Shown here: piece by piece, positions 43,272-46,099 of the stretch | How positions within the stretch are numbered: the first letter of the stretch is position 1 | Layout: each line of letters begins with the position of its first letter | Assembly: GCF_029269825.1 (NCBI RefSeq) | Contig: NZ_JARJHU010000008.1 | Span: forward strand, 62,001-126,000 | Direction: 5' to 3' | Length of the DNA stretch: 64,000 nucleotides | Source of the DNA: Pedobacter sp. JY14-1 | GTDB lineage: Bacteria; Bacteroidota; Bacteroidia; Sphingobacteriales; Sphingobacteriaceae | Position numbers and translations under genes: made by a program | The notes under the pieces: generated by a model | Seen by the model: only the letters and a program-made list of their open reading frames with translations | What the model was told of the DNA's origin: nothing | Databases searched by the model: none

Positions 43272-43348
43272 TCCCGAATAGCTCAGCCGGTTAGAGCATC
43301 TGACTGTTAATCAGAGGGTCGCTGGTTCGAGCCCAGCTTCGGGAGCCA
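43272..43348 (+). tRNA. tRNA-Asn (anticodon GTT)
   Basis: A complete cloverleaf: acceptor arm TCCCGAA (43272-43278) pairs exactly with TTCGGGA (43338-43344). The anticodon stem TCTGA/TCAGA frames the loop CTGTTAA with anticodon GTT at 43306-43308. A GCTGG TTCGAGC CCAGC T-arm is present, then G and an encoded CCA (43346-43348). Confidence 0.97.
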
Positions 43349-43411: not shown

Positions 43412-43419
43412 TATCTTTG
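43412..43419 (+). promoter_or_regulatory. -7 element of the MetF-like gene
   Basis: TATCTTTG, a TAnnTTTG match, 21 bases before the ATG at 43441. The place expected for a -33 box falls in the T-run of the tRNA terminator and has no clear TTG. Confidence 0.4.
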
Positions 43420-43440
43420 CAGCTACAACTGACAATAGCT

Positions 43441-44403
43441 ATGTTCCTGAATAAGATCAAAGCCGGCGAGTCCGGGATACTGACCTATGGTATTACGCCG
43501 CCAAAATCGGAAACAAGTACGGAGAAGATTGCTGAAATTGCTGAAAAGACCATTTCAAGGCTTATACCACTGGATATCGACGCGCTGATCGTTTACGACG
43601 TACAGGATGAATCTGCACGTACTTCTGAAGAAAGGCCATTCCCTTTTCTGAAAGCATTAGATCCGTTTGAATTCGCCAGTAAGTATCTGCAAAAACTGAA
43701 AGTACCTAAAGTCATTTACCGTCCTGCGGGTAAATTCTCAAAGGAAGAATTGTCAGACTGGCTGGACGACCTTCAGCAACATCATTTCTACCCCGTTTTT
43801 GTCGGTGTACCCGCACCAGATTTTCGCGTAAAAACCAGCTTGCCGGAAGCCTATAAACTATGGAGCAGGTATGAAGCGCATTCGGTGATTGGCGCCGTTA
43901 CCATTCCCGAACGGCACGAAGTGCTCAAGGATGAAGATAGAAGGATACTGGAGAAAGCAGATTGCGGCGTCTCGTATTTCATTTCACAATGTGTCTTTAA
44001 CGTAGCTTATGCAAAGCAGGTGATAGAGGACCTTAGTCATACCTGTACTCAGGAGAACAGGAGCTTCCCTACGATCCTGTTTACACTTACGGCCTGTGGT
44101 TCGGTAAAAACACTGGAATTCATGAAATGGCTGGGTATCCACATTCCGGAAAACCTGCAGGCAGAGTTTCTGCAGGCCGAAGATATGCTGGAAAAATCAG
44201 TCAGCGTATGCCTTGACATCGCCCGTGAGCTGACTGATTTCTGCGCAGCCAGGTCCATTCCATTTGGCTTCAATATTGAAAGCGTGGCAATCCGGAAGAC
44301 CGAAATTGAAGCATCGGTGCATATCGTAAACAGGGTTTCGGAAATGATGGCCGATAAAGGCATCAGAAGACCTCAGCCTGCTTCCGTCGGACAAGAACTG
44401 TAG
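43441..44403 (+). CDS. Methylenetetrahydrofolate reductase-like protein
   Basis: 320 residues with the features of a folate-linked TIM barrel. The N-terminus ILTYGITPPKSET resembles the E-x-x-P-P opening of MetF. Further blocks are DIDALIVYDVQDES, PVFVGVP, the segment ADCGVSYFISQCVFNVAYAKQV, and a C-terminal FGFNIESVAI. The overall pattern is closest to the shorter, flavin-poor mycobacterial type of methylenetetrahydrofolate reductase rather than to E. coli MetF. Such proteins reduce methylene-THF to methyl-THF for methionine synthesis; whether this one does is inference. Start at ATG 43441, 21 bases after a TATCTTTG. Confidence 0.6.
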   Translation: MFLNKIKAGESGILTYGITPPKSETSTEKIAEIAEKTISRLIPLDIDALIVYDVQDESARTSEERPFPFLKALDPFEFASKYLQKLKVPKVIYRPAGKFSKEELSDWLDDLQQHHFYPVFVGVPAPDFRVKTSLPEAYKLWSRYEAHSVIGAVTIPERHEVLKDEDRRILEKADCGVSYFISQCVFNVAYAKQVIEDLSHTCTQENRSFPTILFTLTACGSVKTLEFMKWLGIHIPENLQAEFLQAEDMLEKSVSVCLDIARELTDFCAARSIPFGFNIESVAIRKTEIEASVHIVNRVSEMMADKGIRRPQPASVGQEL

Positions 44404-44493
44404 CGGAAACGCCTGCAATACCCTTTTATCCGAAATCACTTTATCCTGTATAATTACGAAATCAGATCGGTATCAGTTCTGCATCAATTCCGT

Positions 44494-44608
44494 CTTGAAC
44501 TATCCTTGGACTATCGTTACACTATGGTTGGACTATCCTTGGACTATCCGATAGATATTCCAACCATAGTTCAAGGATAGTTCAGAGATATAAGAACCAT
44601 AGCTCAAA
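44494..44608. repeat. Palindromic array of 11-bp tandem repeats
   Basis: In the 342-base gap between the MetF-like gene and the first DUF6266 gene. Five direct 11-base units start at 44494, 44505, 44516, 44527 and 44538 (CTTGAACTATC, CTTGGACTATC, GTTACACTATG, GTTGGACTATC, CTTGGACTATC). After five bases the same unit continues in inverted form from 44554 (GATATTCCAAC, CATAGTTCAAG, GATAGTTCAGA, GATATAAGAAC, CATAGCTCAAA), increasingly degenerate. Part of it folds as a long hairpin: 44559-44583 pairs with 44497-44532 apart from a 12-base bulge. The 11-base period is close to one helical turn. I see no open frame, tRNA or IS end in the gap. Confidence 0.85.
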
Positions 44609-44745
44609 ACTGCACTCAGCAGGTTCATACTTTGAGAACAACACAAATTTATTGCTTGTAGGAATAACACGATACGATTTGTTTTACTTACCTTCACAAT
44701 CGTAACAACTCCTGGTTGTCAAAACTTAATATAAACTAACTTATT

Positions 44746-45390
44746 ATGGCAATAGCTGAAAACGGACCTTTAGGGGTCCATCGCGGGAAAATAGAAAATA
44801 CCGTTTATTATATACTCAATGGACAACAGATCGCCCGAAAGATCGGGCGGACGACAAAACCTCCGACATCCGGGAAGCTGCAGCATTGGGCAAAGGTAAA
44901 ACTCGTCAACACGTTTTTAAGTACAATTAAGGATTTTCTGCGCACCGGTTTTGGGCCGGAAAGCCTGGGCACTACTAAAAATGCATTCAATATGGCAGTG
45001 AAGATGAATTTTCGGTCTTTGGTAAAAGGTACTTATCCCGGGCTGGAAATTGATTATCCCCAGCTGATCGTCAGCAAGGGAAAGCTCAAACCGGCACAAA
45101 ACCCATTGGTAGCGGTTGAAGATGCCGGGCTGCGTTTCAGCTGGGATACCGACCCAAGAATGTCGTTTGCAGAAGCGAACGAGCAGGCGATGTTACTGGC
45201 TTATTTTCCTGAACACGGGAAGTCGGTCAGCAAACCTTTTGGCGCGGCGAGACAATCGGGCACGGACCTGCTGGCTTTACCGGAAGCGTTGTGTACCGCT
45301 TACATGGAAGTTTACATTTCATTTATCGCTGCAGACCGGACACAGGTGTCAGACAGCCTGTACCTGGGCAGTCTCAATCAAAACGGATGA
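44746..45390 (+). CDS. DUF6266 family protein, first of a tandem pair
   Basis: 214 residues, no signal peptide, basic N-terminal third. The opening GPLGVHRGKIENTVYYILNG and the run KPPTSGKLQHWAKVKLVNTF, followed by FNMAVKMNF and YPGLEIDYPQLIVSKGKL, fit the DUF6266 family, which is abundant in Pedobacter and relatives and has no assigned function. The C-terminal half (LRFSWDTD..., then LLALPEALCTAYMEVYISFIA) looks like a beta-sandwich, which is inference. It lies 137 bases downstream of an 11-bp palindromic repeat array and 4 bases before a diverged paralogue, so the two form an operon. Confidence 0.85.
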   Translation: MAIAENGPLGVHRGKIENTVYYILNGQQIARKIGRTTKPPTSGKLQHWAKVKLVNTFLSTIKDFLRTGFGPESLGTTKNAFNMAVKMNFRSLVKGTYPGLEIDYPQLIVSKGKLKPAQNPLVAVEDAGLRFSWDTDPRMSFAEANEQAMLLAYFPEHGKSVSKPFGAARQSGTDLLALPEALCTAYMEVYISFIAADRTQVSDSLYLGSLNQNG

Positions 45391-45394
45391 AACC

Positions 45395-46099
45395 ATGGGA
45401 ATATTAGAATCGGGGCTGCTTGGCCCCTTTAGAAATAAAATTGGTCCTGCAGTGGGCCGTAAGCACAACGGACAGAATCTGATCGTAGCGGCCTACAGAA
45501 AGAGCAGAAAACCACCTACCGGGGTACAATTGTGGGAAAGAGAAAAATTCAGATTGTTAAATGGCTTTTTAAGCTGCATCCCTGACCTGGTAGCGCCGGG
45601 ATTTAAAAAATATGCAAAGAAGAAAAGCGCGCTGAATGCAGCTTATTCCTATAATTATCCCAATGCCTTTATGCCAGCCACCCCGGACAATGATCATAGT
45701 GCCACCGGTGAAAACGCGGATGAAGAAGCTAAAACCGCCGGGCCGCGGCTCAACTTTTCCGCGTTGGTATATAGCAGAGGCGACATTGCTATGCCGGATG
45801 GACTGAATGTAAGCAGACATGGCAACCATGTCGTGTTCAATTGGTCTGCGCAGCAACAATCCTTTTATTGTCAGCTCAGTGACCTGGCTTCCTTCCTGGT
45901 CTGCGCTGAAGATGAAAAAGACTTCGTGGTGAGGCTGCGTGCTGCGGAACGCCATGAACTCAGTTTTGAAATGGAGGTTCCCGCGACATTTAACGGCCCC
46001 TTACACTGCTACATGAGTTTCGCTTCTGCGGATGGAAAGCTTCCTGGCAATAGTAAATATGCGGGAGCAATAACTCACTTCAGCATTCCTACAACCTGA
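45395..46099 (+). CDS. DUF6266 family protein, second of a tandem pair
   Basis: 234 residues, paralogous to its neighbour. LLGPFRNKIGPAVGRKHNGQ matches the N-terminal signature, KPPTGVQLWEREKFRLLNGF the second block, and LNFSALVYSRGDIAMP plus GNHVVFNWSA the later ones. An extra charged segment (about 100-118, DNDHSATGENADEE) is absent from the first copy. Start at ATG 45395, 4 bases after the upstream stop; a longer open frame reaching back to 45116 is a shadow of the first gene. Its last 25 bases overlap the end of the convergent cytochrome b5-like gene. Function unknown. Confidence 0.82.
   Translation: MGILESGLLGPFRNKIGPAVGRKHNGQNLIVAAYRKSRKPPTGVQLWEREKFRLLNGFLSCIPDLVAPGFKKYAKKKSALNAAYSYNYPNAFMPATPDNDHSATGENADEEAKTAGPRLNFSALVYSRGDIAMPDGLNVSRHGNHVVFNWSAQQQSFYCQLSDLASFLVCAEDEKDFVVRLRAAERHELSFEMEVPATFNGPLHCYMSFASADGKLPGNSKYAGAITHFSIPTT

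What the first reader, a model, noticed from the sequence alone, without database searches (positions are those of the whole stretch)
44494..44608. Palindromic array of 11-bp tandem repeats in front of the DUF6266 gene pair
Seen directly: five tandem copies of an 11-base unit (consensus CTTGGACTATC), then, after five bases, the same unit running in inverted orientation for five more, increasingly degenerate copies. The 11-base step places each unit on nearly the same face of the helix. The head-to-head design suggests a protein-binding platform or a strong RNA hairpin, or a replication-slippage product. It lies in the only gene-free stretch above 300 bases, 137 bases upstream of two tandem genes of unknown function. 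I know of no named element with this structure.
Basis: partly seen in the sequence, partly recalled or inferred. Interest (0 to 1): 0.6.

Follow-up and report, generated by a model that had tools for sequence, protein, structure and literature searches.

The report
DUF6266 genes' private 11-base palindromic arrays
In Pedobacter, genes of one unstudied protein family (DUF6266) are repeatedly preceded by a head-to-head array of 11-base repeats whose lettering differs by species and by gene, and the same lettering recurs before ribosomal RNA operons and other genes, pointing to an undescribed protein-DNA recognition system.

Summary
The array is real: five 11-bp units, a 5-base spacer and five inverted units (44494-44608). 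It belongs to a genus-wide family of ~150-bp palindromes. The own genome has two more copies, in front of rRNA-type promoters; 28 of 109 good Pedobacter genomes have hits. Arms hold 4-5 units with skeleton TTG-NNN-TA-N-SS, in species-specific words.

The DUF6266 link holds. Thirteen of 86 genes whose start faces an element are DUF6266 (one per genome, one subfamily, including window 44746-45390); 0 of 49 genes ending at an element are. Of 26 top-scoring genes of that subfamily, 25 have an 11-bp array upstream, against 0 of 200 control upstreams. Twelve of 38 other DUF6266 genes carry their own, differently worded array. Dispersed arrays share words with the DUF6266 array of the same genome. 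In two complete genomes arrays precede every leading rRNA operon. Y1 transposases (REP/RAYT) are absent from eight array-bearing genomes. Arm covariation beyond shared words is not seen, so RNA-hairpin selection is unsupported.

Best reading (inferred): a word-specific DNA platform bound by the cognate DUF6266 protein, self-regulating, with rRNA operons among its targets. A REP-like dispersed element is the main rival.

The parts
44477..44618 (.). Whole palindromic element, including flanks shared with other copies in the genome
   Evidence: Ungapped 142-bp alignment at 79% with the copy at G000:C8:577-718; CM hit to all 160 model positions, G000:C8:106468-106627
44494..44548 (+). Left block: five 11-bp units, CTTGGACTATC consensus
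44549..44553 (.). Spacer CGATA between the blocks
44554..44608 (-). Right block: five inverted units, decaying outward
44651..44682 (+). Possible Bacteroidota-type promoter between array and gene (weak)
   Evidence: Best consensus match only 7 of 10 bases; not evidence of function
44746..45390 (+). DUF6266 gene of the array-linked subfamily, proposed cognate binder
   Evidence: PF19781 E 6.6e-30; groups with array-linked DUF6266 of 12 other genomes
45398..46099 (+). Second DUF6266 gene of the tandem pair, outside the array-linked subfamily; role in the system unknown
   Evidence: PF19781 E 1.7e-21; tree

Best explanation
The array is a DNA-level, multi-site binding platform for the DUF6266 protein encoded just downstream. 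Units 11 bp apart lie near one face of the helix, and two head-to-head blocks of four or five let the protein assemble cooperatively and symmetrically. The protein recognises its own word (here TTGRACTATSS) and regulates its own gene. Copies with the same word upstream of rRNA operons and other genes are its further targets. Other DUF6266 paralogues have private words, so a genome holds several parallel protein-word pairs. Shown: the arrays, their architecture, their upstream link to DUF6266, sharing of words within a genome, and sites before rRNA operons. Inferred: that DUF6266 binds DNA, that it binds these words, and that binding changes transcription.
For: DUF6266 is 13 of 86 head genes and 0 of 49 tail genes. 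25 of 26 subfamily genes have an upstream array, 14 of 15 among genes not used to build the profile; 12 of 38 other DUF6266 genes have one; controls 0 of 200. Dispersed arrays share words with the DUF6266 array of the same genome: mean 78 nine-mers against 3.7 across genomes. Subfamily and model-R1 arrays co-occur: 18 of 19 genomes against 11 of 100. A site flanked by orthologues keeps its element while its words follow the genome (L175/L160). Arrays precede every leading rRNA operon in G361 and G809, in G809 with two word families. Divergent intergenic regions are over-represented against convergent ones, 27:8 versus 5:7 in control (p 0.03, crude gene calls). N-terminal 100 residues basic in all 12 proteins.
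Against: No DNA-binding fold was recognised: the C-terminal half resembles fibronectin-III domains and the N-terminal part has no match. About 8 of 70 arrays lie between convergent genes. In the own genome's rRNA loci the array lies over 100 bp upstream of the promoter-like sites. G317 and G814 have no array before 16S genes. No expression or binding data.
Confidence: 0.45

Rival explanations
1. A REP/MITE-like dispersed element: the arrays are short non-autonomous elements moved or copied by a partner, perhaps DUF6266 itself, as REPs are by RAYT transposases; the copy beside the gene is the master.
For: Dispersed copies share words within a genome and homology beyond the units. Some lie between convergent genes, where an operator makes little sense. 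One gene with adjacent copy per genome resembles RAYT organisation.
Against: No Y1 transposase in eight array-bearing genomes. DUF6266 resembles no transposase or nuclease. Copy number is low. Elements persist at orthologous sites (L123/L164/L176, L175/L160). No empty site with target duplication was found, though none could be sought properly.
Confidence: 0.32
2. Selfish or neutral minisatellite: slippage, unit-level gene conversion and palindrome correction make and homogenise the arrays, which do nothing; the link to DUF6266 is hitch-hiking.
For: Whole-unit replacement and loss of unit-sized blocks between rRNA paralogues in G809. Outward decay of units.
Against: Four or five units per arm kept across species. 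Upstream link to one gene family, 0 of 200 controls. Conserved sites whose words follow the genome.
Confidence: 0.12
3. A transcribed RNA hairpin (terminator, mRNA stabiliser or protein-binding leader); 11 bp is also one turn of A-form RNA.
For: Strong predicted fold, -48.8 kcal/mol, z -6.6. The first six copies follow a stop codon of a co-directional gene.
Against: No compensatory excess: RNAalifold covariation term +1.44; same-element arms match no better than arms of different elements. Divergent contexts are common. No U-run follows. Promoter-like sites lie downstream of the arrays before the own genome's rRNA loci. No Rfam match.
Confidence: 0.07

Closest known systems
REP/REPIN elements with RAYT (TnpA-REP): PMC2817692, PMC3116915, PMC8266576
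   Same: Dispersed intergenic palindromes whose sequence is genome-specific, with a copy beside one gene that is the proposed partner.
   Different: REPs are 20-40 bp (abstract of PMC3733652); these are ~150 bp, built of 11-bp units, 3-17 hits per genome; the partner is DUF6266, not a Y1 transposase, which is absent.
BrickBuilt minisatellite MITE of Porphyromonas gingivalis (PMC4596501)
   Same: Bacteroidota, intergenic, tandem units inside an element, about 19 copies per genome.
   Different: 23-nt units in one direction, leader and tail with small terminal inverted repeats, 1 to 22.8 units; here 11-bp units in two inverted blocks of constant size, linked to one gene family.
Pho-box-like arrays of OmpR/PhoB-type regulators (own knowledge)
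   Same: Direct repeats with an 11-bp step, upstream of genes.
   Different: Two or a few half-sites in one orientation; no head-to-head 5+5 blocks; the linked gene here is not a response regulator.
Iteron arrays of plasmid origins (own knowledge)
   Same: Tandem helically phased sites beside the gene of their binder.
   Different: Chromosomal, several loci per genome, inverted halves, no replication protein seen.
ERIC and similar enterobacterial intergenic repeat units (RU-1, 127 bp; PMC2759123)
   Same: Imperfect palindromes of 100-170 bp in intergenic regions.
   Different: Not described as built of short tandem units or tied to a gene family.

Membership tests
REP/RAYT | Y1 (TnpA-REP) transposase in the genome | tested here: not met
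   PF01797: 0 of 8 array-bearing genomes; positive in 5 of 14 control genomes
REP/RAYT | Palindrome units of 20-40 bp | tested here: not met
   ~150-bp palindromes of 11-bp units; size definition from abstract of PMC3733652
REP/RAYT | Partner gene flanked by copies of the element | tested here: inconclusive
   Element upstream of DUF6266 in 25 of 26 subfamily genes; downstream side not examined
MITE | Terminal inverted repeats matching an autonomous transposon, and target-site duplications | not tested
   Outer end motifs exist, but no autonomous partner or empty site was identified; one comparison of rRNA paralogues gave no clean empty site
BrickBuilt | 23-nt one-directional repeat with leader and tail | tested here: not met
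   Period 11, two inverted blocks against the description in PMC4596501
Transcription-factor operator array | Upstream of genes | tested here: met
   89 heads against 51 tails; DUF6266 heads only; but 8 convergent sites
Transcription-factor operator array | A cognate protein binds the units | not testable with these tools
   Needs purified protein
Transcription-factor operator array | Recognised DNA-binding domain in the candidate regulator | tested here: not met
   No such domain by Pfam or by fold; basic N-terminus only
Structured RNA element | Compensatory pairing between arms beyond shared words | tested here: not met

The most novel reading that the evidence does not exclude
DUF6266 is a large, fast-evolving family of sequence-specific DNA-binding proteins. 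Each paralogue reads its own 11-bp word in head-to-head arrays; words are rewritten in concert across a genome as the protein diverges, and rRNA operons are recurrent targets. This would be a growth-linked regulatory or selfish system of Bacteroidota with no described counterpart.
Probability: 0.4. Interest if true: 0.87.

Novelty: new variant of a known kind. Interest (0 to 1): 0.74.

Why it matters
DUF6266 is a multi-copy family (about 20 genes in this genome) with no known function and no paper in the library searched. A recurrent link between these genes and private 11-bp words gives a direct, testable handle on its function. Recurrence of the same words before rRNA operons would tie the family to control of ribosome synthesis, which is poorly known in Bacteroidota (own knowledge). 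Changing words at conserved sites offer a natural experiment in protein-DNA co-evolution.

Tried and rejected
Exact-word searches across the family and phylum found almost only the own genome and P. frigoris; it looked like a rare element until a covariance model relaxed the words. Early one-mismatch hits in other Pedobacter (L026-L029) look like coding sequence and chance. A terminator role was considered because the first six copies follow a stop codon, and dropped when divergent contexts and head-only DUF6266 links appeared. Word-for-word pairing of arms seemed visible by eye in G364; the test over 68 elements did not support it. Plasmids, phages and viral contigs: nothing. PADLOC and PHROGs: marginal hits only. 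The first scan of own DUF6266 upstreams took minus-strand loci in the wrong orientation and was redone; the tree contains rows misread for the same reason or too short (L039, L041, L043, L048, L053) and lacks several own paralogues, so 'apart from the other paralogues' rests on the plus-strand ones. DUF6266 genes in other families (L308-L313) show no long array.

Full report
OBSERVATION. The sequence at 44494-44608 reads as five 11-bp units, the spacer CGATA, and five inverted units that decay outward. It is far beyond chance: lag-11 score 35/44, against at most 27 in thirty 64-kb Markov sequences, and 0 of 2000 random 600-bp window stretches at 27 or more.

SAME GENOME. The window lies in a 4.08-Mb genome (G000) of the genus that holds Pedobacter frigoris (G219:C1 has the length and the hit position of NZ_SWBQ01000001.1). 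A pattern search finds two further copies, both within about 700 bp of contig ends. They lie in a region shared at 93% over 520 bp, followed by two Bacteroidota-like promoters (TACTTTTGCA, TACCTTTGCAAT) of the kind expected before rRNA operons (the rRNA identity in this genome is inferred). The window copy aligns with one of them without gaps over 142 bp at 79%, so these are dispersed copies of a ~150-bp palindrome.

GENUS. P. frigoris has three copies, one of them in front of a DUF6266 pair. A covariance model from the six copies finds hits in 28 of 109 good genomes of the genus. Eighty elements were fetched with flanks. Autocorrelation in the arms peaks at lag 11 (0.56; other lags 0.21-0.31). 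Each arm mostly has four or five units (43 of 86 elements are 4+4). Positions 1-3 (TTG), 7-8 (TA/TG) and 10 (C/G) are conserved and the rest vary; the phase was chosen by TTG, so positions 1-3 are partly circular. Words differ between species: TTGRACTATSS here, TTGGAATGACC in G361/G337/G013, TTGCTTTACCC in G012/G811, TTGGTATACCC in G364.

DUF6266 LINK. Among genes flanking the elements, 13 of 86 whose start faces the element are DUF6266, one per genome, and 0 of 49 whose end faces it. These 13 group together, apart from the correctly read other DUF6266 genes of the own genome. A profile of 12 of them, run over 119 genomes, gave a ranked list. Of the 26 best with fetched upstream DNA (229 bits or more), 25 have an 11-bp array upstream, including 14 of 15 not used to build the profile and cases where the covariance model saw nothing (G032, G023, G006, G311). 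In 200 other upstream regions none was found; the one hit was the window element itself. Twelve of 38 other DUF6266 genes also have an array, with other words, five of them in the own genome (L032, L033, L045, L046, L049).

SHARED WORDS. In 12 of 13 genomes the dispersed arrays are far closer to that genome's DUF6266 array than the average array of other genomes (means 78 against 3.7 shared nine-mers; G014 is the weak case). Genomes with the subfamily (265 bits or more) have R1 arrays in 18 of 19 cases, others in 11 of 100; leaving out genomes used for the profile, 7 of 8. At one site flanked by orthologues (90% and 72% identical) G012 and G810 both have an element, each in its own genome's words.

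RIBOSOMAL RNA OPERONS. Seven elements of G361 and G809 lie about 810-880 bp before a 16S gene. G361 has five 16S genes; the four leading operons carry the array, the one second in tandem does not. In G809 all four leading operons carry two arrays of different words, one copy shortened by unit-sized losses. One of these words is the word before a DUF6266 gene of G809 (L258). In G019 two rRNA arrays have the word of that genome's array-linked DUF6266 gene (L240), and a third (L303) has a word seen before a DUF6266 gene of G809 (L259). G317 and G814 show none, and G370 only a weak run.

WHAT IT IS NOT SHOWN TO BE. Compensatory pairing of arms is not supported. No Rfam family matches the array. 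No Y1 transposase occurs in eight array-bearing genomes. No phage or plasmid relative was found.

PROTEIN. The AlphaFold2 model (pLDDT 80) has an N-terminal beta hairpin and helices, then a beta sandwich. Foldseek matches only fibronectin-III-like domains, weakly. The N-terminal 100 residues are basic in all 12 proteins, compatible with nucleic-acid binding but no proof.

MECHANISM. Most likely a DNA platform read by the cognate DUF6266 protein, with self-regulation and further targets. A REP-like dispersed element with DUF6266 as partner is the main rival; conserved sites argue against it, convergent-gene locations for it. Distribution beyond the genus is open: Chitinophaga rhizophila has one-directional 11-bp arrays with closely related words (CTTGGACTAYS) at many loci, with no DUF6266 among the six neighbours scanned.

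Noticed in passing
L056, L057, L070, L072 (Chitinophaga rhizophila): Many one-directional 11-bp arrays with words such as CTTGGACTACC, CTTGGACTATG and CTTGTTCGTCG, not palindromic, with no DUF6266 among six neighbours scanned.
   Followed up: partly
L032, L033, L045, L046, L049 (own genome): Five other DUF6266 genes have private 11-bp arrays with different words, some apparently one-directional.
   Followed up: partly
L281, L288, L301, L307 (G809 rRNA upstream regions): Paralogous rRNA upstream regions differ by whole-unit replacements and unit-sized deletions in the arrays, a sign of unit-level conversion.
   Followed up: partly
L099, L100, L241: Outside the TTG units the 11-bp periodicity continues with a second, A/T-rich word (e.g. 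GAGAAATACTT, TAGGGAATAAG).
   Followed up: no
L308, L309 (distant families of the class): Suggestive three-unit 11-bp run (CAAGTCCGNNN) about 60-80 bp before a DUF6266 start.
   Followed up: no
L058 4820-4870 (Alicyclobacillus), L054 445-475 (Anaerolineae): Short TTGGACTATCG / TTGAACTATCG tandem runs in unrelated phyla, probably chance given the size of the collection.
   Followed up: no
window 43417-44403: The gene before the array has only a sub-threshold match to methylenetetrahydrofolate reductase; a tRNA lies at 43272-43345.
   Followed up: no
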